Shown: positions 50,872-60,286 of the stretch, one piece after another
Position numbering within the stretch: the stretch's first letter is position 1
Layout: each line of letters starts with the position of its first letter
Assembly: GCA_019347675.1 (NCBI GenBank)
Contig: JAHWKW010000007.1
Span: 1 to 64,000, forward strand
DNA: 64,000 nt
Direction of reading: 5' to 3'
Origin: Actinomycetota bacterium
GTDB lineage: Bacteria > Actinomycetota > Nitriliruptoria > Nitriliruptorales > JAHWKO01
Notes under the pieces: model-generated
Databases searched by the model: none
What the model was told of the DNA's origin: nothing
What the model saw: the letters and a program-made list of their open reading frames with translations, nothing else
Translations under genes and position numbers: made by a program

Positions 50872-51318
50872 CTAGAGCGACTCCATGAGGTCCTTCAGGT
50901 TCTCCAGCGTGTGCTTGGCTTCACGTTGGTTACGCCGCTCGACGTAGAGGCGGTCGAGCGCCTCACCCAGGAAGCCTCCGGGCAGGTCGTAGTCCACGTC
51001 GACCTCGACGCGGCATCCTGCGCCGGCCTCGGTCACCCGCTGTGCCATGTGTAACCGCCCACCGCCTGCTGCCTGCGCCTCGTACATCACCTGCCGGGGA
51101 GGATCGACCTCCAACACCGTCCATTCCGTCTCGAGGTTGAGGCCGGCGACACGCAGGGTCTGACGGAAGGAGTCGCCACTCTGCAGCGGCCCGTCGGGAA
51201 GATCATGGTTCTCCACCACCATCGTGGCCCACAAGACGAGCCGATCGAGATCGGTGAGGACCTCGAACACCTCCTGCGGAGTCCGCTCGATCTCGACGCT
51301 TTCCTGGATCTGTGCCAT
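50872..51318 (-). CDS. SRPBCC-family (polyketide cyclase/START-like) protein
   Basis: A 148-residue single-domain protein. ESVEIERTPQEVFEVLTDLD is the usual SRPBCC opening and the C-terminal long helix is RNQREAKHTLENLKDLMESL. The fold binds hydrophobic ligands in a deep pocket. It follows the type III polyketide synthase by 40 bp with its own AAAGGAG site, so it may act on the polyketide product; that link is inference. Confidence 0.82.
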   Translation of the reverse strand: MAQIQESVEIERTPQEVFEVLTDLDRLVLWATMVVENHDLPDGPLQSGDSFRQTLRVAGLNLETEWTVLEVDPPRQVMYEAQAAGGGRLHMAQRVTEAGAGCRVEVDVDYDLPGGFLGEALDRLYVERRNQREAKHTLENLKDLMESL

Positions 51319-51358
51319 CGCTGCTCCTTTCGGGTCCGAACATAGGCCGCTGCCGCCA

Positions 51359-52408
51359 TCACGGTCCCTCGTCGCCCACCACCCGAAGAAGAGCCCCGAA
51401 GAGGGTCAGCCCCGGCCCGAATGCCAGTGCCACGACGTGATCGCCGGGCGCGAAGGAGTGGGTCCGGAGCAGTTCCTGCAGGATGAGGACGACGGTGGCG
51501 GAAGAGCAGTTGCCGCAGTCGCGCAGGACCCGCCGCGATGCCGTCAGCTGCGAGTCGGCCAAGCCGAGGCGGTCGGCGACCGCGTCGAGGATCCGGGGGC
51601 CGCCGGGGTGCACGGCCCATGCCGCCACCTCATCGATCCTCACGTCGCGACGGGACAGCAGCGCGGTGACGAACTCGCCGACGTGATCGCGCAGGATCGT
51701 CGGGACCTGACGTGACAAGCCCAGCCGGAAGCCGCGATCGGTCACGTCCCAGGTCATACAGCTGGCTTGCGAGCTGTCCGTGTGGGCGGTCACGTCCACC
51801 ACCTCGAGCCCGGCGCCTCCAGGAACCAGCGCAACGGCTGCGGCGGCGTCCGCGAACAGCGCGTGGGCCACGGCCTGTTCGAGGTCGTCGGATGGCGGCT
51901 GGATGTGCAGGCTGCTGAGCTCGACGCACAGCACGACGGCGGTGAGGTGGCGCGCCCTGACGGCATCCGCCGCGGTGGCCAGGCCCGGAAGAGCCGCATA
52001 GCAACCCATGTGCCCGACGTGCAGGCGCTGGAGGTGGGGCGGCATTCCGACGTCGCGGGCAAGGAGGACGTCCAGCCCCGGCGTGACGTAGCCGGTGCAC
52101 GACACGACGACGAACAGGTCGACTTGTGCCGGATCGAGACGCGCGTCGGCAAGGCAGGCCGCCAGCGCTTCCTTGCCCAGGGGCAGCGCCTCCTCCCGGA
52201 AGCGGCGCATCCGGGCTTCCGTACCCCAGCCGCTGACGTCCCCGACGGTCGGGTCTGCCACCACGTGGCGGGAGCGGATGCCCGTCCCTTCCCAGATCCT
52301 GCGGGCGGCCCTGCGGTCGTGGTAGTGGTCGCGGAAGAACTGCCATCCGCGTTCCTGTGGGACGGCGGGCGGCAACGCCGATCCGACGCCGACGATCGTG
52401 GCGCTCAC
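51359..52408 (-). CDS. Type III polyketide synthase
   Basis: A chalcone-synthase-like homodimeric enzyme that condenses malonyl-CoA units without an acyl carrier protein. The catalytic triad is visible: Cys136 (VGHMGCYAA), His267 (AWAVHPGG) and Asn300 (RDCGNCSS). Length 349 is typical. It resembles the bacterial alkylresorcinol/alkylpyrone type, but the product is unknown. Its GTG at 52408 overlaps the stop of the NifU-like gene (GTGA), tying it to the hydrogenase operon. Confidence 0.88.
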   Translation of the reverse strand: MSATIVGVGSALPPAVPQERGWQFFRDHYHDRRAARRIWEGTGIRSRHVVADPTVGDVSGWGTEARMRRFREEALPLGKEALAACLADARLDPAQVDLFVVVSCTGYVTPGLDVLLARDVGMPPHLQRLHVGHMGCYAALPGLATAADAVRARHLTAVVLCVELSSLHIQPPSDDLEQAVAHALFADAAAAVALVPGGAGLEVVDVTAHTDSSQASCMTWDVTDRGFRLGLSRQVPTILRDHVGEFVTALLSRRDVRIDEVAAWAVHPGGPRILDAVADRLGLADSQLTASRRVLRDCGNCSSATVVLILQELLRTHSFAPGDHVVALAFGPGLTLFGALLRVVGDEGP

Positions 52409-53010
52409 CACGGCCGGTTGTCCCGCCGCGATCCCCCGGGAGCGGGACGCTCCTGTCGGCGGGACACCAGCGTGGTGGGGACGACCGGCAGATCCTGCAC
52501 CACCTTCACGCGGACCAGGTCGCCGAGCTGGGCCGTCAGCGTCTCCTCGACCACGGTCCGCAGCGCCGGTCTCGAGCGCTGGCCTGCCCCAGAGAGGCGC
52601 ACCGTGACCACACCTTCTTCGGCCTCGAGCAGTTCCAGGTTTCCCCCGTCGCGCTCCACGTCGGAGCGGAGGGCATCGACCACGGAGCCCGCCCGAGCCC
52701 GCTCCCCGTCCTCGCCCAGCTGGTACAGCTCGAACAGCAGGCGGACCTCAGGGGCGACCACGGCCGGCTCGGTCAGGCCTGCCTCCTTCAGCATGGCGGC
52801 GATGCGTCGCAGTCCCCAACGGTGGACGGTGTCCACGCAACGCAGCATGTCGAACACGTCGTCGCGCACGGCTGGCTCCGCGTCTTGCGCGAAGCCCTGC
52901 ACGAGCTCGTCGAGACGGTCGAGGGCACCTGACACCTCCGGAGCCAGCTCCGCCTGTGGTCGCGCTTCCGGGCGGACCCCATCGCAGCTGTGGCAGCCCG
53001 GCGTGGTCAC
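52405..53010 (-). CDS. NifU-like C-terminal domain protein, scaffold cysteines lost
   Basis: A 201-residue protein. An N-terminal CHSCDG leads into a helical middle (about 25-110, LDELVQGFAQDAEPAVRDDV), then a NifU C-terminal-like domain (VVDALRSDVERDGGNLELLE, then GVVTVRLSGAGQRSRPALRT). In true NifU domains the last part reads GACxxCPSS; here both cysteines are gone, so it cannot be an ordinary Fe-S scaffold. It overlaps both neighbours by four bases. Confidence 0.75.
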   Translation of the reverse strand: MTTPGCHSCDGVRPEARPQAELAPEVSGALDRLDELVQGFAQDAEPAVRDDVFDMLRCVDTVHRWGLRRIAAMLKEAGLTEPAVVAPEVRLLFELYQLGEDGERARAGSVVDALRSDVERDGGNLELLEAEEGVVTVRLSGAGQRSRPALRTVVEETLTAQLGDLVRVKVVQDLPVVPTTLVSRRQERPAPGGSRRDNRPW

Positions 53011-53579
53011 GGCGACTCCCCCGCGCCGTGGGAGGTCCACATCCAGCCGATCGTGTCCACCGGCGAGATGCCCCGTCCCATGGCGGCGACCACGGCCAAG
53101 CTCAGGCCGTAGGCCAGCTGCTCCACGAGGAGTGCGATCGGGCCCAGGAGACCGGCCCCCAGCCCGAACAGGCCGGGATCCTCCAACTCGCCGCTTGGAA
53201 GTCGGCCGAGAACGCCGTAGAGCGCCAGCACGGCCCCGGACAGCACCCACAGGACCATGCCCGCGAGCAGGCCTTTGAGGAGGGCGCCGCGGAAGGTGAT
53301 GTCGTCGCCGGGAAGGGCAGGCCACAGCCCAGACAGCAGCAGCGGGAAGACGAGCACGCCAGCGGAGACGAACACGGCGTACCCGATCTGGAACGCGGTG
53401 TCGGGGTCTTCCGCGAAGAGCGCCCCGACGAGGAGCGGCAGGTCGATGAAGGGCAGGCCGAGGACGGGTGCCAGATGGATCAGCGCGGCGAGCAGGACGG
53501 TGGCCACCAGCCCGCCCAGGATGGTCAAGGGGAACAGCGAGGGGTGAGGCTTGTGGATGACGGGGGCACTGGAAACCAT
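53007..53579 (-). CDS. Integral membrane protein of the hydrogenase operon
   Basis: A 190-residue protein with four to five membrane spans (LTILGGLVATVLLAALIHLA, then VFVSAGVLVFPLLLSGLWPA, LLAGMVLWVLSGAVLALYG, and LGPIALLVEQLAYGLSLAVV). The ATG at 53579 follows a very strong GAGGAGGAG site that overlaps the protease stop. I do not recognise a family. Its place suggests a membrane partner or electron route for HhySL. Confidence 0.75.
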   Translation of the reverse strand: MVSSAPVIHKPHPSLFPLTILGGLVATVLLAALIHLAPVLGLPFIDLPLLVGALFAEDPDTAFQIGYAVFVSAGVLVFPLLLSGLWPALPGDDITFRGALLKGLLAGMVLWVLSGAVLALYGVLGRLPSGELEDPGLFGLGAGLLGPIALLVEQLAYGLSLAVVAAMGRGISPVDTIGWMWTSHGAGESP

Positions 53580-53589
53580 TCCCTCCTCC

Positions 53590-54162
53590 TCAGCCGGTCT
53601 GGCGCGGGAGTGGAGCTGCCGCCTCGGCTCCCACGAGCGCCACGACGTCGGGGACGAGGCGGGCCGCAGGCGGGCTCAGCTCGCAGCCGCCGGTCCCCTT
53701 GTCCTGGCGACGACCGCCTTCGGCTACTTCAGTTGCGTCGACCACCGGCTCCAACTCGATCACGACCACGTCCTGAGGCAGGGCCCCGAGGTGGCCGGCG
53801 ACGACCAGGAGGTGGTCGAGGTCGATAACGCCCGCGCCGGCTTCGCGCAGGCGAGCGAGGACCTCCTCGTCGGCGGGGAGGGTGCCGTCCCACCGCCACC
53901 GGTAGACGCGCCCCGACTCGCGGCCTCGTGACACGGCGGCGACCAGGATGACCCGGTCGTAGGGCGGCTGGGCGTCGGCCAGGTCCTGAGCGACGTAGAG
54001 GGCGCCGTAGCCGAGATCGGCCACCTCGACGCCGGGAGCCAGGCCAACGGAGGCCAGTTCGTCGCTGACGGCCAGACCGAAGGAGGCGTCGCCCAGCCAG
54101 CGGTAGCCCACCCCGCCCACGAGGACACGGGTGGGCGGGGGCGCCGCCGGCGCCCCCGCCAC
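53590..54162 (-). CDS. Hydrogenase maturation protease
   Basis: Peptidase of the HybD/HycI type that cuts the C-terminal tail of the large subunit after nickel insertion. It begins TRVLVGGVGYRWLGDASFGL; the Asp of LGD and Asp of VEVADLGYG match nickel-sensing positions of the family. About 190 residues with GTG 54162; GTG 54189 is also possible. The first codons contain a strong GC hairpin. It follows hhyL directly. Confidence 0.78.
   Translation of the reverse strand: MAGAPAAPPPTRVLVGGVGYRWLGDASFGLAVSDELASVGLAPGVEVADLGYGALYVAQDLADAQPPYDRVILVAAVSRGRESGRVYRWRWDGTLPADEEVLARLREAGAGVIDLDHLLVVAGHLGALPQDVVVIELEPVVDATEVAEGGRRQDKGTGGCELSPPAARLVPDVVALVGAEAAAPLPRQTG
54135..54159 (-). other. Strong hairpin at the hhyL-protease junction
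   Basis: An 11-bp perfect stem (GCGGGGGCGCC with GGCGCCCCCGC) around a 3-base loop lies immediately after the likely protease start codon. It could slow translation of the protease or stabilise the hhySL message end. Confidence 0.6.
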
Positions 54163-54173
54163 GGTCGGGTCGT

Positions 54174-56042
54174 TCAGGTGCTCGCGCACAGGCACGTGTG
54201 GACCTCGCGGACGATCTTCCCCGCGCCGGAAGACAAGTGCACCGTGCAGGGCATGCAGGGATCGAACGAGCGGATCGCACGGAAGATGTCGATCCCCGTG
54301 AAGTCGGCGTCGGAGTCGAACTCCTCGATGATGGGGGTGTTCATCACCGCTTCCTCCACGGGGCCGCCCCGGCCCCACGGGTCCCGAGGAGAGACGTTGA
54401 ACGTGGACGGGGTGACGACCTGGTAGTTGACCAGCGCGCCCTTGTCCATGACCAGGTGGTGGGTGAGATACCCACGTCCGGCGCCCCAGAAGCCCACGCC
54501 GCGCCGCTCGTCGCCGGGTATGCGGGGGGAGGTCGACCAGGCCGCCCTGGTCTCGCCCTTGGCGTGCAGGTCGGTCGCGATGAGCACGTTCTCGTAGGCC
54601 ACCAGGAGCGAGTAGACGATGTGGTAGGCGCGGGCGAGGTTGCGTTCGAACGCGTTCCAGACGTCGGGGATCTTCCACTCCAGTTCCATGGCCGGGAGCC
54701 GGGTCTGGGGGACGTGCATCTTCACGCTCGTGCCCGTGGACTCCAGGAAGCGGGTGTGGGGCAGCTTGCGGGCGGCGGCGGTGGCCCATAACCGCGCGTA
54801 CGGGCCGGCCTCCACCACCTGCCGGTCCCAGCGGGCCGCGGTGCTCCAGGTGTAGGCATCTCTCCAGCTGCGCTGGCCCGCGACGGGCTTGGTCTCCTTG
54901 TTCCACGGGTGGTTGGGCGAGATCGGGTTGCCGGCCGGGTCGGTGCGGTACCGAACCCCCTCGTTCTCCCATCCCTCGTAGTAGGCGTGCTCGACGAACT
55001 CCTCGAGGCCCATGTTGATGTGCTGCAGGTTGGTGGTGACGAGCTGGCCGTCGATCACCACGCCGGGGGTCGCCCAGCGGCGCTCGCCCCACTCCGCGCA
55101 GTTGGCGTAGCTGCCGTCGTAGGCGTCGAGGTCGTCCCACATCCCGGTATCGATCAGGTTCTTCTGTCTGGCGCCCACCTGCTTGTGCCGCGGGTCGGCC
55201 TCGTAGAAGAAGCGGGTGAGGTCCTCCCAGATGAACACCCCGCGTTTGGCGTAGTCCATGGTGCGCACGATGCGGATCTGCGTCTCGCTGAGGACCTGCG
55301 AGGACACGGTCGTGGACAGCCCGCCGGGCACGACGGTCTGGGGGTGGGGGTACTTGCCGTAGAGGATCGAGTAGGCCTCCTTGGGCGGCCGCGTCATGTG
55401 CAGCCCCTCGAGGTAGAGCTTGCCGACCAACGGGTTGAAGGCCCGCATGATGTCGGCGATGGTGCGGAAGTCGTGGACGTCGGCGTGGGCGGCCTCGGTC
55501 TTCTCGGCTCGTGCCCACAGCGAGGGGTTGGTGCGCTCGACCACGACCTGGGAGAAGTCGGGCCCGGCCATGAGGTACAGGTGCACGGGGTTGTCGAGCA
55601 TGAAGTCCAGGCCCAGCTGGACGTTGCGCAGAGCGAGCCCGAGCGGGGGGACACCGATCCCGAAGGCCATCTCGATGGCCAGCGAGGAAGCCACGGAGTG
55701 CACCCCGCCGCAGACTCCGCACACCCGGCTGGAGATGAACATGGCGTCGCGGGGGTCACGCCCTTTCAGGATCACCTCGTAGCCGCGGAACAGGGTGCCG
55801 ATGGCGTGGGCCTCGTGAACGTTACCCGCCTCGAGGTCGACGACGGCGTGGAACGCCAGCGCGCCCGCCACCCGGCTCACCGGGTCGAGGTTGACGTCCT
55901 TGACGCGCCCGCCGTGCGCCAGCAGTTCCTCCACCCGGGAACGGTCGATCTCTCGGGCCTGGTAGGCGTAGGGCTCGGCGTCATCGGTGAGCCGGGCCCG
56001 CCCGTGTTCGTCGAACTCCACCGGCAGGTTCTGGAAGCACAC
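54174..56042 (-). CDS. hhyL: [NiFe] hydrogenase large subunit, group 1h type
   Basis: Catalytic subunit with the NiFe(CN)2CO centre. The 622-residue protein has the first ligand pair in RVCGVCGGVHS (Cys108, Cys111) and the second in FDPCMPCTVH (Cys596, Cys599). A 20-residue tail follows His602 and should be removed by the adjacent protease. The overall sequence resembles high-affinity actinobacterial Hhy enzymes (formerly group 5), which oxidise atmospheric H2. The GTG start at 56042 lies two bases after hhyS, with GAGGAGA upstream. Confidence 0.93.
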   Translation of the reverse strand: MCFQNLPVEFDEHGRARLTDDAEPYAYQAREIDRSRVEELLAHGGRVKDVNLDPVSRVAGALAFHAVVDLEAGNVHEAHAIGTLFRGYEVILKGRDPRDAMFISSRVCGVCGGVHSVASSLAIEMAFGIGVPPLGLALRNVQLGLDFMLDNPVHLYLMAGPDFSQVVVERTNPSLWARAEKTEAAHADVHDFRTIADIMRAFNPLVGKLYLEGLHMTRPPKEAYSILYGKYPHPQTVVPGGLSTTVSSQVLSETQIRIVRTMDYAKRGVFIWEDLTRFFYEADPRHKQVGARQKNLIDTGMWDDLDAYDGSYANCAEWGERRWATPGVVIDGQLVTTNLQHINMGLEEFVEHAYYEGWENEGVRYRTDPAGNPISPNHPWNKETKPVAGQRSWRDAYTWSTAARWDRQVVEAGPYARLWATAAARKLPHTRFLESTGTSVKMHVPQTRLPAMELEWKIPDVWNAFERNLARAYHIVYSLLVAYENVLIATDLHAKGETRAAWSTSPRIPGDERRGVGFWGAGRGYLTHHLVMDKGALVNYQVVTPSTFNVSPRDPWGRGGPVEEAVMNTPIIEEFDSDADFTGIDIFRAIRSFDPCMPCTVHLSSGAGKIVREVHTCLCAST

Positions 56043-56044
56043 GG

Positions 56045-57499
56045 CTAGCTCTCCTCGTCGAGAGGCGTGTCGAAGCCCTCGACCTGTGGCGTCAGGCCCC
56101 GGCGCCGGGAGGTGCCGCGCTGTCGAGCCAGCTCTTCCCGCCGCTCCGGGAGCTCCTGGGCGTAGTCGTCCCCGTAGGCGGCCTCCGGCGGCGTCACGTA
56201 GCCGCTGGCGTACTTCTCCACGTCCTTCTGGCGGCCCGGAACGTCGGAGCGGAAGTACTGGATGCGCAGGTAGAAGGACTCGAACACCCGGTGGAACAGC
56301 GTGACGCGGTCGTACTCCGGGGCCCAGCCGCTCGGTACCCGGTCGCGCCAGCGCGGCTCGCGGTTGCGCTCAAGCTGGGTCACCCGCCGCAGAGGCGTCA
56401 CGAACGTGCCGTGCAGGCGCGACAGCGTGCTGGCCGGCGTGGTGAACGGTGGGCGCTTGTAGAAGGGGGTGAACTTGTCGGGGAACCCCGGCATGGTGCA
56501 GCCGATGCACGCCCCACCGGCGACCATGCACCCGCCCTTGTGATCCACGTAGCCGCGCTCGGTGATGTTGCAGTTGACCACCGGCCCCCAGCAGCCGATC
56601 TCGGCCAGGCACTCCTTGCCGCCGTACTCGCGAGCGAACTTGCCCTCCTCGTACCAGGCCCCGCGGGGACACCGCACGTGCACCGTGTCGCCGAACTGCC
56701 ACGTCGGGCGCCCCAGCTCGTCGAAATCCGGGAGCGGGCCTTGCCCGTTGATGAAGCGCAGGAGGAGCGCGACGGTCTCGGTGAAGTTGTCGCCGATGGG
56801 GGGGCAGCCGGGGACGTTGATCACGGGGAGGCCGAGCTTGCTGCGGTAGTCCTGGCCCAGGAAGTCCATGAGGCTCATCGCCCCGGTCGGGTTGCCCAGG
56901 GACGCCGGTATCCCGCCCCAGGTCGCGCATGTGCCGATGGCGATGGTGACCGCCGCCCCCGGAGCCAGGCGCCGCACCCACTCGGGTGTGGAGATGCGCC
57001 TGCGCTCCTCCGCCGGCGCCCACGTGGGCAGCGCCCCTTCGGCCGCCCACGGCTCGGCGCCCATGGTGAGGTTCTCGTCGGTGATCGAGCCCTCGTAGAC
57101 CACGACGTAGGGCGCTTCGAGCTCGCCCGTTTCGGCCCTCTCCATGGTGATGGTGAAGTGGTCGCCGGACTCCATCGCCTGCTGGTAGTGGTGCAGCACG
57201 ACGACGGGGACCCCTGGGAGCGCCCCGGTGAGCAGCTCCTCCGGCCCCGGGTCGGTCGCGCCGAGCGTGGCGACCGTGCACCCGTCGCAGCTCATGCCCG
57301 GCAGCCAGAAGACGTAGACTTTGTTGATGGGCCCTTCGGTGGCCGTGCGCCCGCCGGTGCGGATCATGCGCTCGGCCAGCTCCCCGGTGTTGGCGCCGGC
57401 CACGTTGCCGAGCTGGTCGGGCAGCGAGCGGCTGGTCTCCCCCTCGACCGGTCGGTCCACCCGGGCTTTGGTCGGGATGGTGACCATCTGTTCCGGCAT
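56045..57499 (-). CDS. hhyS: [NiFe] hydrogenase small subunit, group 1h type
   Basis: Electron-transfer subunit carrying Fe-S clusters. The 484-residue protein has the proximal-cluster region GMSCDGCTVA (Cys71, Cys74), GTCATWGG and PGCPP, then further ligands in CLAEIGCWGPVVNCN and GGCMVAGGACIGCTMPGFPD. There is no Tat signal peptide, so the enzyme should work in the cytoplasm or on the inner membrane face, as group 1h enzymes do. ATG at 57499 with AGGAGGG seven bases upstream. It is long, with an extra C-terminal part of about 130 residues. Confidence 0.93.
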   Translation of the reverse strand: MPEQMVTIPTKARVDRPVEGETSRSLPDQLGNVAGANTGELAERMIRTGGRTATEGPINKVYVFWLPGMSCDGCTVATLGATDPGPEELLTGALPGVPVVVLHHYQQAMESGDHFTITMERAETGELEAPYVVVYEGSITDENLTMGAEPWAAEGALPTWAPAEERRRISTPEWVRRLAPGAAVTIAIGTCATWGGIPASLGNPTGAMSLMDFLGQDYRSKLGLPVINVPGCPPIGDNFTETVALLLRFINGQGPLPDFDELGRPTWQFGDTVHVRCPRGAWYEEGKFAREYGGKECLAEIGCWGPVVNCNITERGYVDHKGGCMVAGGACIGCTMPGFPDKFTPFYKRPPFTTPASTLSRLHGTFVTPLRRVTQLERNREPRWRDRVPSGWAPEYDRVTLFHRVFESFYLRIQYFRSDVPGRQKDVEKYASGYVTPPEAAYGDDYAQELPERREELARQRGTSRRRGLTPQVEGFDTPLDEES

Positions 57500-57525
57500 G
57501 CGTGTTCCCTCCTGGAGGACCCGGC

Positions 57526-57819
57526 CTAGACGACCCGGTCGGATCCGGCTGCCACCCGTAACGCAGTGTCGGTTTCGGCCAGGCGGCGCGCGGCGGCGTC
57601 GAGGGCGGCGGCCGTGTCGGTCGTGGAGGCCGACAGCGCGCGCGCGTAGGCGTCGAGGGGGGCAAGCTGCTGCTCGACGGCGCGCACGCCCACCACGACC
57701 TTCTCGAACCAACCTCGGATGCTCTGCAGGGCTTTCACGATCAGGAGCAGGCCGGTGGCGAGGACGCCGAGCAGGGCCCAAGCGGCCAGCACCGACAGGA
57801 TCATGAGCACGACGGGCAT
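57526..57819 (-). CDS. Single-span membrane protein D of hydrogenase operon
   Basis: A 97-residue protein: N-terminal membrane span (ILSVLAAWALLGVLATGLLL) then a helical segment with FEKVVVGVRAVEQQL and AAALDAAARRLAETDTALR. Start ATG 57819 overlaps the previous stop by one base (TGATG). It is the last of four genes with the same layout just before hhyS. No known family is recognised; a membrane anchor or scaffold for the hydrogenase is inferred. Confidence 0.72.
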   Translation of the reverse strand: MPVVLMILSVLAAWALLGVLATGLLLIVKALQSIRGWFEKVVVGVRAVEQQLAPLDAYARALSASTTDTAAALDAAARRLAETDTALRVAAGSDRVV

Positions 57820-58115
57820 CACGACCTCCGGGCGCCGGCGGTGGGAGACAGCGACTCGACCGTGCGTTCCACAGCTGCCGCCCGGGAAGCGAGAGTGGTT
57901 GCCGCCTGCCCCAGCTCCCCGCCCACCTCCGCCACCGCTGCGAGCATCGGCTCCGCAGCGATGTTCTCGGCCAGGCCCGCCGCGGTCTGGGCGTTCAGCT
58001 CGGTGAGCCGGCGGATGTGCTTGAGCACGCGCAGCGTGATGAGCACGAGCTTCAGGACCGCGAGGATGGCGAGCCACGACCCGATCAGCCCGATCCACCA
58101 CAGCGCTGCCATCAC
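57819..58115 (-). CDS. Single-span membrane protein C of hydrogenase operon
   Basis: A 98-residue protein with an N-terminal span (LIGSWLAILAVLKLVLITL), a basic junction (RVLKHIRRL) and an Ala-rich helix (AAVAEVGGELGQAATTLASR). GTG 58115 overlaps the preceding stop by four bases; the ATG at 58112 is an alternative. Same layout as its neighbours. Confidence 0.72.
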   Translation of the reverse strand: MMAALWWIGLIGSWLAILAVLKLVLITLRVLKHIRRLTELNAQTAAGLAENIAAEPMLAAVAEVGGELGQAATTLASRAAAVERTVESLSPTAGARRS

Positions 58116-58411
58116 CGCCCCCCGCCGACGTCGGCTGGCTCGGTGAGCTCGGCCAGCCGGTCATCGGCCCGGCCGAGGCTGGCTCGGGCCTCCGCCAGCG
58201 CTGTGGCACAGACGGACCAGGCGCCGTGCAGGCGCTCGACGCCGCGGCTCAGGCCTGCTGCGGCGTCGGCCACCGCGGCGAGCGAGAGTCGGACCCGCTC
58301 CAGGTTGCGGGTCGTACTCACCAGAAAGACCAGGACGACGACGAGCCCGGCCACCAGGGCGGCGACGAGGACCCCGGCGGAGGCGAGGGTGAGGGTTCGG
58401 AGCAGCTGCAT
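58112..58411 (-). CDS. Single-span membrane protein B of hydrogenase operon
   Basis: A 99-residue protein with span ASAGVLVAALVAGLVVVLVF, then a helix containing TRNLERVRLSLAAVADAAAG and RASLGRADDRLAELTEP. ATG 58411 starts one base after the previous stop. The heptad-like hydrophobic spacing suggests a coiled coil. No family recognised. Confidence 0.72.
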   Translation of the reverse strand: MQLLRTLTLASAGVLVAALVAGLVVVLVFLVSTTRNLERVRLSLAAVADAAAGLSRGVERLHGAWSVCATALAEARASLGRADDRLAELTEPADVGGGR

Positions 58412-58412
58412 A

Positions 58413-58772
58413 TCAGCCCGGTTCTCCCGGGTCGGCCCCGGCGCTCCCCACCCACTCCTTGACCTTGCGCGCGATGCCGGAGCCCTCGCCATCCTCAGCC
58501 GCGAGGGCCGCGAGCTTGCCGTTCATCGAGCCGATGGTCTGCTCCAGGGCCCGGGCCGATTCGCGCACTGCCGTGATCTCCTCGTTGGTCTGCTCCAGCA
58601 GCCAGAGCGACACCGTGTTCTCCGCGATCTGCTTCGCCTGGCTCCAGACGGCCCCGGCCCGCCGGTCGATGCTCTTGGCCACCGCGATGACCAGGCCCAG
58701 CAGGACGGCCACGACCACCACCACGGCAGAGAAGACGGCCAGCGCCAGCCACCACCGCTCGGGGTCGCTCAC
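58413..58772 (-). CDS. Single-span membrane protein A of hydrogenase operon
   Basis: A 119-residue protein: MSDPERWWLALAVFSAVVVV opens the span, followed by a helix with WSQAKQIAENTVSLWLLEQT and ESARALEQTIGSMNGKLAAL, and a basic KVKEWVG near the end. The GTG start (58772) overlaps the stop of the second mini-ORF (GTGA), and the same RBS-start region is present in two further upstream copies. It is the first and longest of the four similar proteins. Confidence 0.72.
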   Translation of the reverse strand: MSDPERWWLALAVFSAVVVVVAVLLGLVIAVAKSIDRRAGAVWSQAKQIAENTVSLWLLEQTNEEITAVRESARALEQTIGSMNGKLAALAAEDGEGSGIARKVKEWVGSAGADPGEPG

Positions 58773-58846
58773 GGGTACACCTCCGTCGCGGTCTTCGGAG
58801 ACCGAAGACAGCTCCTCTCGCGCCGCTCCTGCGGAGCGTCGCTCAC
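58769..58846 (-). CDS. Mini-ORF 2 in the hydrogenase operon (25 aa)
   Basis: Second copy of the 25-codon frame, from GTG 58846 to a TGA overlapping the gene A start at 58772. The single base difference from mini-ORF 1 is synonymous (CCG versus CCA proline), which hints that the peptide frame may be under constraint, though one site proves little. GGAGG precedes the GTG. Confidence 0.45.
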   Translation of the reverse strand: MSDAPQERRERSCLRSPKTATEVYP

Positions 58847-58920
58847 GGGTACACCTCCGTCGCGGTCTTCGGAGACCGAAGACAGCTCCTCTCGCGCCGC
58901 TCCTGTGGAGCGTCGCTCAC
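58843..58920 (-). CDS. Mini-ORF 1 in the hydrogenase operon (25 aa)
   Basis: Starts at GTG 58920, which overlaps the DUF2231 stop (GTGA), and encodes 25 residues opening VSDAPQERRERSCLRS. Its own stop overlaps the next GTG. It is an exact peptide duplicate of mini-ORF 2. It could be a translated leader passing ribosomes along, or a by-product of duplication. Confidence 0.45.
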   Translation of the reverse strand: MSDAPQERRERSCLRSPKTATEVYP

Positions 58921-59516
58921 CGCCGGACCTGAGGCGCCTGGTCCTCGTGGGCGGGGCGCCCCGACAGTGAGTGGGGAGCGTCTGCGTGGGCGCCTTCGTC
59001 GATCGCGACGGCGTGCCGGTCGACCAGCTCGCCCCCCAGCCACCCGGTGAACAGGGCCAGGACGAAACCGGCGAAGGACGCAACGTAGGCGACGGCGTCG
59101 GGTGACTCGGGCGCCTCCCGTCGCAACACCCAGCTGGTGACGAACAGGACGAGCAGGACCGCGTTCCCGGCGCCGTGGAGCAGCCCGACCTTCTTGGCCC
59201 GCGTCCCGCCGGGGATGCCGAGCCAGTCCACGAACCCGGGCAGTGCGGCCGCCACGCCGCCGATGATGCCGGCCGCGATCATCCAGTACGCGACGGTGGC
59301 CAGGTCATCCGCGCCGGTGACCAGGTACAGCACGTCGAAGATCACGGCGGTCGCGAGCAGCGCGAAGGGGAACGGGATCAGTTGCTGGTGCAGGGCGTGT
59401 CCGAGGAACTTCACCCGGCTCTCCACCGGGCGAGTCTCGACGGCACCGTCGGTCGTCGCTCGATCTGCCGGGGCGGCCGAACCGGGGTTTGCCCACTCTG
59501 GCGGCTGTCCAGCCAT
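58917..59516 (-). CDS. DUF2231 membrane protein
   Basis: A 199-residue protein with four membrane spans (about 48-155; IPFPFALLATAVIFDVLYLV, WMIAAGIIGGVAAALPGFVD, GLLHGAGNAVLLVLFVTSWV, AYVASFAGFVLALFTGWLGG) and histidines at the span ends (LGHALHQQ, LLHGAG) that could bind heme, as suggested for DUF2231. It is the first gene of the hydrogenase operon. ATG 59516 has AAGGAG five bases upstream. Confidence 0.8.
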   Translation of the reverse strand: MAGQPPEWANPGSAAPADRATTDGAVETRPVESRVKFLGHALHQQLIPFPFALLATAVIFDVLYLVTGADDLATVAYWMIAAGIIGGVAAALPGFVDWLGIPGGTRAKKVGLLHGAGNAVLLVLFVTSWVLRREAPESPDAVAYVASFAGFVLALFTGWLGGELVDRHAVAIDEGAHADAPHSLSGRPAHEDQAPQVRR

Positions 59517-59825: not shown

Positions 59826-60286
59826 ATGGAGTTCCAGTTCTGGCCCGCGGTGGTGGCGGGCGTGGTCGGTGGCGCGGCCATGTCGATGCTCGACTGGATG
59901 ATGAAGCCCATGGGGATGAGGATGGACCCACACCAGATGTGGGGCACCATGATGAAGCTCCACGGTGGCCTCGGGTACGCGATCGGCTTCGTGGTGCACG
60001 TGGTCCTGAGTGCTGCGATCGCGCTGCTGTACGCGCTGTTCTTCGACGTCGTCGGCGTGGAGGCGAATCTGTGGGCCTGGGGGCTGGTCGGAGGTGCACT
60101 CCACTGGGCGATCGCCGGGGGGATGGTCTGCCCATGGTCCCGGCGATGCATCCTGAGATCCCGGATCGGCAGCCCGCGCCGGGGATGTTCGTGAAGAACG
60201 ACGGCGCGCTTGACGCAACCGGCTTCCTGATGAGCCACCTCGTCTACGGGCTGGTCGTCGGGGTCGTCTACGGGATGTCGACGTAG
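59826..60286 (+). pseudogene. Membrane protein with a late frameshift
   Basis: The frame opens with GGAGGGAGAACGG and ATG at 59826 and gives about three membrane spans (FWPAVVAGVVGGAAMSMLDW, GYAIGFVVHVVLSAAIALLY, LWAWGLVGGALHWAIAGGM). At about 60120 the sense moves to another frame (PMVPAMHPEIPDRQPAPGMF and LMSHLVYGLVVGVVYG, ending 60286). One inserted or lost base would explain it. A full-length protein would have about 153 residues. The function is unknown. Confidence 0.6.

What the first reader, a model, noticed from the sequence alone, without database searches (positions are those of the whole stretch)
50872..59516. Hydrogenase operon with a dedicated set of small membrane proteins
HhyS and HhyL sit in a run of about 12 minus-strand genes joined by four-base or one-base overlaps. 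Four consecutive genes (57526-58772) each encode one membrane span followed by a helix of 60-90 residues, with little sequence similarity to one another. With DUF2231 (possible heme ligands) and a further multi-span protein they look like a purpose-built membrane apparatus. HucM shows that aerobic hydrogenases of this kind can use a scaffold to reach the quinone pool; these four proteins could be an unrelated solution. That role is inference.
Basis: partly seen in the sequence, partly recalled or inferred. Interest (0 to 1): 0.78.

Follow-up and report, generated by a model that had tools for sequence, protein, structure and literature searches.

The report
Shared membrane-helix module of trace-gas enzymes
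Next to an oxygen-tolerant hydrogen-oxidising enzyme, this soil-type bacterium carries four tiny genes for single membrane helices; the same small helix set sits beside related hydrogenases in many phyla and, protein for protein, beside the enzyme that oxidises carbon monoxide, so it is probably a common device for docking gas-scavenging enzymes to the cell membrane and its quinones.

Summary
The gene run is real: 12 minus-strand genes (50872-59516), with four single-TM genes A-D (57526-58772) upstream of the [NiFe]-hydrogenase S and L genes. The enzyme is not group 1h. Its small subunit has a Cys proximal ligand (SCDGC) where 1h has Asp, and it falls in the 1l/1m clade, in a four-TM-upstream subclade spanning Actinomycetota, Chloroflexota, Armatimonadota and Acidobacteriota. 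A-D are conserved, not orphans. They match, one to one, the TM genes that lie between S and L in four-TM 1l-type loci (published name HylTM). A~C and B~D are homologous pairs, so the array is a doubled two-gene unit. All 15 genomes with this hydrogenase clade, among 296 sampled, carry the A family; 21 group 1h loci carry no array. New here: (i) the 1m enzyme has five such genes, where two were reported; (ii) the same five families sit beside form I Mo-CO dehydrogenase (coxMSL, AYRCSFR, CoxG) in 11 loci. Topology is N-out/C-in, on the enzyme's side. Best reading: a helix stalk docking cytosolic trace-gas oxidases to membrane and quinone, working like HucM. Homology and association are shown; docking and quinone transfer are inferred. 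A type III PKS in the operon hints at a dedicated polyketide quinone.

The parts
58917..59516 (-). DUF2231 four-TM protein (199 aa)
   Evidence: PF09990 E=3e-32; also near L052, L055/L056, L061
58413..58772 (-). Small TM protein A (119 aa), type 1; motif KQIAxNTxxxWxL
   Evidence: Position-defined family in 19 loci; profile found in 15 of 15 genomes with this L clade
58112..58411 (-). Small TM protein B (99 aa), type 2
   Evidence: B~D homologous; one-to-one with second TM gene of four-TM 1l-type loci, E=2e-22
57819..58112 (-). Small TM protein C (97 aa), type 1
   Evidence: A~C homologous with TM removed, E=1e-10; matches third TM gene of four-TM 1l-type loci, E=4e-22
57526..57819 (-). Small TM protein D (97 aa), type 2; motif GxRAxExQ
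   Evidence: B~D with TM removed, E=4e-12; profile in the same 14 of 101 relatives as A
56045..57499 (-). [NiFe]-hydrogenase small subunit (484 aa); SCDGC proximal motif, C-terminal extension, no Tat signal seen
54174..56042 (-). [NiFe]-hydrogenase large subunit (622 aa), CGVC and DPCMPC intact
   Evidence: best PDB 5aa5 E=9e-139; alignment; tree
53590..54189 (-). HycI/HyaD-type maturation protease (199 aa; start uncertain)
   Evidence: TIGR00072 E=4e-12, just under cut-off
53007..53579 (-). DUF6789 four-TM protein (190 aa), typical of the window subclade
   Evidence: PF20587 E=2e-8; 13 loci
52405..53010 (-). NifU-domain protein (201 aa)
   Evidence: PF01106 E=2e-8
51359..52408 (-). Type III polyketide synthase (349 aa), overlaps NifU gene by 4 bases
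   Evidence: PF02797, PF00195; best PDB Pks18 E=1e-40, Pks11 E=1e-38
50872..51318 (-). SRPBCC/START-like protein (148 aa)
   Evidence: PF10604 E=6e-20; PDB MSMEG_5634, Rv1546; near relatives' PKS in L052, L053
58764..58920 (.). 74-bp repeat, 2.1 copies, between DUF2231 and A, reaching A's start

Best explanation
A-D are the membrane module of a group 1l-like [NiFe]-hydrogenase. Each is a single helix whose N-terminus lies outside and whose 60-90-residue amphipathic part lies in the cytoplasm, on the same side as the Tat-less enzyme. Two type-1 (A, C) and two type-2 (B, D) helices assemble into a hetero-oligomeric stalk that holds the S/L enzyme at the membrane and gives menaquinone a route to the distal Fe-S cluster, as the HucM tetramer does for Huc. 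The same five-family module was adopted for, or shared with, form I CO dehydrogenase. Shown: gene conservation, orthology, pairing, topology statistics, co-occurrence with both enzymes. Inferred: oligomer, contact with the enzyme, quinone passage.
For: Array in essentially every intact locus of the clade, with fixed type order 1-2-1-2 or 1-1-2-1-x, and in none of 21 group 1h loci. Co-occurrence in 296 genomes: 15 of 15 clade-L genomes have A, 266 of the other 281 do not (p about 2e-17, not corrected for relatedness). Among genomes without this hydrogenase, 12 of 13 array-bearing ones have form I CODH. CODH-array positions match 1m-hydrogenase families one to one (E 8e-25 to 2e-16). K/R: 2.93 in the 20 residues after the TM against 0.25 before (N-flank median only 9 residues); 450 of 471 proteins have more after. 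Tails more amphipathic than shuffles (mean z 1.9). A modelled as a continuous helix. HucM precedent: amphipathic helices forming a hydrophobic tube from enzyme to membrane (PMC10017518).
Against: No contact data; only monomers could be modelled and the small-subunit model was weak (pLDDT 61.5). Many form I CODHs and all 1h enzymes tested lack the array, so it is not generally required. The array also occurs beside an Mrp antiporter and a 1601-aa protein, which are not known quinone reductases. Two 1m-type paralogues (L032 in this genome, L035) have no array within the fetched flanks.
Confidence: 0.5

Rival explanations
1. The array is an assembly or localisation scaffold: it builds a membrane domain or supports maturation and insertion of the enzymes but carries no quinone.
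For: Clustered with HycI and NifU; in 1m clusters also with TPR, CooC-type ATPase and PadR genes; CODH arrays sit next to XdhC/CoxI and CoxG; also beside non-oxidase genes.
Against: Four to five distinct membrane helices kept in fixed order across phyla is more than a simple tether or chaperone would need; group 1h enzymes mature without it.
Confidence: 0.27
2. The array is a generic membrane-stress or lipid-domain module co-transcribed with energy genes, without direct contact.
For: Occurrence next to an Mrp antiporter in this genome (L167) and a DUF255/DsbH-N 1601-aa protein in L186, L187, L199.
Against: Co-occurrence with the two trace-gas enzymes is near-exclusive: 29 of 30 array-bearing genomes have one of them.
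Confidence: 0.13
3. The array passes electrons itself (redox-active membrane subunit).
For: Position beside redox enzymes whose electrons must leave for the membrane.
Against: Tails contain 0.3% Cys and 2.3% His, and no invariant Cys or His column was found in A or D.
Confidence: 0.03

Closest known systems
Group 1l [NiFe]-hydrogenase (Hyl) with HylTM1-5
   Same: Same enzyme clade by layout and tree; TM proteins orthologous (A-D match the four-TM loci one to one).
   Different: Published description: five TM genes between S and L (PMC9561532). Here four, upstream of S, with S and L adjacent and DUF6789, PKS and SRPBCC added.
Group 1m [NiFe]-hydrogenase (Ray et al. 2022)
   Same: S and L adjacent; single-TM small proteins; protease and Fe-S assembly genes.
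   Different: The window L is outside the 1m-type clade and lacks local TPR, BirA and CooC genes. The 1m-type clusters examined here carry up to five TM genes (3+2), where two were reported.
Huc (group 2a) with HucM
   Same: Small helical partner encoded immediately upstream of the small subunit, proposed membrane stalk for menaquinone (PMC10017518).
   Different: HucM is one 188-aa protein forming a homotetramer, peripheral to the membrane; here four different proteins, each with its own TM span. Homology was not tested.
Form I Mo-CO dehydrogenase (coxMSL) with CoxG
   Same: Carries the orthologous TM array in 11 loci.
   Different: Different enzyme superfamily; most CODH genomes in other lineages show no array.
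Polyketide quinone (PkQ) operon of mycobacteria and Streptomyces
   Same: Type III PKS + methyltransferase + oxidoreductase (PMC9927152) is the set found near relatives' hydrogenase genes.
   Different: In the window itself only the PKS and SRPBCC are present; no methyltransferase or oxidoreductase homologue in the 64 kb; product unknown.

Membership tests
Group 1h [NiFe]-hydrogenase | Proximal cluster with Asp ligand (SCDGD) | tested here: not met
   Window SCDGC; 72 of 73 clade S have Cys, 7 of 7 1h controls have Asp. That the Asp is a cluster ligand in 1h is from memory of the 5AA5 structure.
Group 1h [NiFe]-hydrogenase | Large subunit inside the 1h clade | tested here: not met
   39-41% identity to 1h; 1h rows form their own 100% clade
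Group 1l [NiFe]-hydrogenase | Large subunit within the 1l clade | tested here: inconclusive
   Nested among loci with the published S-TM-L layout, 98-99% SH support, FastTree only; no authenticated 1l sequence was available as anchor
Group 1l [NiFe]-hydrogenase | Five TM genes between S and L | tested here: not met
   Four TM genes, upstream of S
Group 1l [NiFe]-hydrogenase | TM proteins of the families found between S and L in 1l-type loci | tested here: met
   A-D against four-TM 1l-type positions 1-4: E 2e-34, 2e-22, 4e-22, 1e-22
Group 1m [NiFe]-hydrogenase | S and L adjacent | tested here: met
   2 bases apart
Group 1m [NiFe]-hydrogenase | TPR, BirA-like, CooC-type genes in cluster | tested here: not met
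   Absent at the window locus; present in L033, CooC-type in L036
Group 1m [NiFe]-hydrogenase | Large subunit in the 1m clade | tested here: not met
   Window lies outside the 17-row clade of 1m-type loci
HucM family | Sequence homology to HucM | not tested
   No comparison with HucM was run
HucM family | Oligomeric helix tube bound to the enzyme, open to menaquinone | not testable with these tools

The most novel reading that the evidence does not exclude
Bacteria use one standard membrane-helix module as the quinone dock for unrelated atmospheric-gas oxidases, group 1l/1m [NiFe]-hydrogenases and form I Mo-CO dehydrogenases. In the window's lineage it works with a dedicated polyketide quinone made by the operon's type III PKS and handled by the SRPBCC protein.
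Probability: 0.2. Interest if true: 0.9.

Novelty: new variant of a known kind. Interest (0 to 1): 0.7.

Why it matters
Group 1l was the most abundant hydrogenase lineage in oligotrophic desert soils in one survey (PMC8528921), yet I found no account of how it reaches the respiratory chain. Finding that its TM proteins fall into two duplicated families, that 1m-type clusters have the full set of five, and that CO dehydrogenase loci carry the same five turns scattered 'small TM proteins' into one defined module that can be deleted, tagged and solved in two enzyme systems at once.

Tried and rejected
Single-protein Pfam and NCBIfam scans of A-D gave only sub-threshold hits. The idea that A-D are orphans of this genome was rejected. 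Group 1h membership was rejected. The idea that the module is hydrogenase-only was rejected. The idea that the window SRPBCC is CoxG was not supported: no PF06240 hit. First profile labelling of A-D was over-inclusive and was replaced by position-defined families. The type call of the fifth gene in five-TM 1l arrays stayed ambiguous. Literature searches found no paper linking these TM proteins to CODH, but the library has no preprints and few subscription papers.

Full report
What is there. Twelve minus-strand genes run from 59516 to 50872: DUF2231, A, B, C, D, hydrogenase S and L, a HycI-type protease, DUF6789, NifU, type III PKS and SRPBCC. Codon statistics support each small gene. The genome has two further hydrogenases of the same clade, on contigs C9 (58% identity in L) and C1 (54%). 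It probably belongs to class Nitriliruptoria: a contig of a genome in the same class is identical to a named Nitriliruptorales record.

Which enzyme. L has the intact Ni-binding motifs CGVC and DPCMPC, and its best PDB match is 5aa5, the Ralstonia enzyme that Ray et al. name as group 1h. It is nevertheless not group 1h. Identity to 1h is about 40%. 1h forms a separate clade. The proximal motif is SCDGC in 72 of 73 clade small subunits and SCDGD in all 7 1h controls. S is longer (median 443 against 359) through N- and C-terminal extensions. In a FastTree of 99 large subunits the window falls in a 22-row clade (99%) from Actinomycetota, Chloroflexota, Armatimonadota, Acidobacteriota and one Gemmatimonadetes MAG. 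That clade is nested among loci with the published group 1l layout and lies apart from the 1m-type clade. Published descriptions: 1l has HylTM1-5 between S and L; 1m has S and L adjacent with two small TM proteins (PMC9561532).

The TM array. Gene order in 80 named loci shows three layouts: four TM genes upstream of S (window type), four or five between S and L (1l type), and a divergent 3+2 set (1m type). Profiles built by position show that A~C and B~D are homologous. With the TM segment cut off the E-values are 1e-10 and 4e-12, while cross pairs fall to 2-21% probability. The array is thus a doubled type 1-type 2 unit, and the pattern 1-2-1-2 or 1-1-2-1-x holds in nearly all clade loci with a complete array (exceptions include two-gene arrays in L089 and L091). 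A-D match positions 1-4 of the four-TM 1l-type loci one to one, and the five-TM genes in the order A-like, A, D, C, B. These E-values come from pairwise profile alignment without a database background; the weak cross pairs serve as the built-in control.

Controls. None of 21 group 1h loci has an array. In 296 genomes of the phylum the A profile occurs in 30. All 15 genomes with this L clade are among them; of the 281 others, 15 have it (Fisher p about 2e-17, uncorrected for relatedness). In 101 relatives the A and D profiles pick the same 14 genomes.

The unexpected part. Among the 15 A-positive genomes without a clade L, two (G081, G258) are fragmented assemblies with the small subunit beside the array, and 12 of the other 13 have form I CO dehydrogenase. 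In 11 loci (L162-L164, L188-L195) the array lies close to coxM-coxS-coxL or CoxG. CoxL carries AYRCSFR wherever it is complete, and three examples pass the TIGR02416 equivalog cut-off. In most of these the array follows CoxG directly. The five CODH-array positions match the five 1m-hydrogenase families one to one, pair block first and triple block second (E 8e-25, 1e-18, 1e-20, 7e-18, 2e-16). The module is therefore shared by two unrelated enzymes of atmospheric gas oxidation. Not every CODH has it: 26 of 38 CODH genomes without this hydrogenase lack it. Other contexts: an Mrp antiporter in the window's own genome (L167), a 1601-aa protein with a DUF255/DsbH-like N-terminus (L186, L187, L199), and one unclear array (L165).

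How it may work. Across 474 distinct small TM proteins, positive charge lies after the TM (450 of 471), giving N-out/C-in; the tails are amphipathic. S shows no convincing Tat signal, although six acidobacterial S have an RRx[FLIVM] string in the first 45 residues that was not examined further. A is modelled as one continuous helix through membrane and tail. HucM forms an amphipathic helix tube that links Huc to the membrane and fits menaquinone (PMC10017518). By analogy, A-D would form a hetero-oligomeric stalk. This last step is inference. That CoxG carries quinone for CODH is my recollection of recent work and was not found in the library.

Polyketide branch. The PKS overlaps NifU by four bases. 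In relatives of the window subclade it stands with a UbiE-like methyltransferase and an acyl-CoA dehydrogenase (L030, L052, L053, L055, L174) or an FAD monooxygenase (L057). Its best PDB matches are Pks18 and Pks11. PKS, methyltransferase and oxidoreductase is the reported set for polyketide quinones, alternative respiratory carriers (PMC9927152). It occurs in none of the other loci fetched. A dedicated quinone is possible but untested, and the window itself lacks the two partner genes nearby.

Limits.

Noticed in passing
L162:8843-10246, L163, L164, L188-L195: The TM array of this hydrogenase lies close to form I CO dehydrogenase genes (coxMSL/CoxG), with one-to-one family correspondence.
   Followed up: yes
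L167:8560-9802 (window genome contig C9): A five-gene TM array lies directly upstream of an Mrp-type cation antiporter operon, far from the hydrogenase on the same contig.
   Followed up: partly
L186, L187, L199: TM array beside a 1601-1606-aa protein with a DUF255/DsbH-like N-terminal domain and otherwise no known family.
   Followed up: partly
window 58764-58920: 74-bp tandem repeat just upstream of gene A, reaching A's ribosome site and start codon; near-identical copies at about a dozen other sites in the genome.
   Followed up: partly
window 51359-52408; L030, L052, L053, L055, L057, L174: Type III PKS with methyltransferase and acyl-CoA dehydrogenase or FAD monooxygenase near this hydrogenase subclade only, resembling polyketide-quinone operons.
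   Followed up: partly
L038:7415-9127: Hydrogenase large-subunit homologue that has lost Ni-binding cysteines (CGWSGS, FDPGMTEATH), next to a TM array with no small subunit adjacent; the relative in L168 keeps them.
   Followed up: partly
L042 (90000-109999 of G060 contig 15): Second window-type cluster with S and L frames broken; sequencing errors or decay.
   Followed up: no
window 59826-60194 (+): Membrane protein 41% identical over 81 aa to a three-TM protein found immediately upstream of gene A in L030 and L050.
   Followed up: no
L032 and L035: Two 1m-type hydrogenases (one in the window's genome) without a TM array within the fetched flanks.
   Followed up: no
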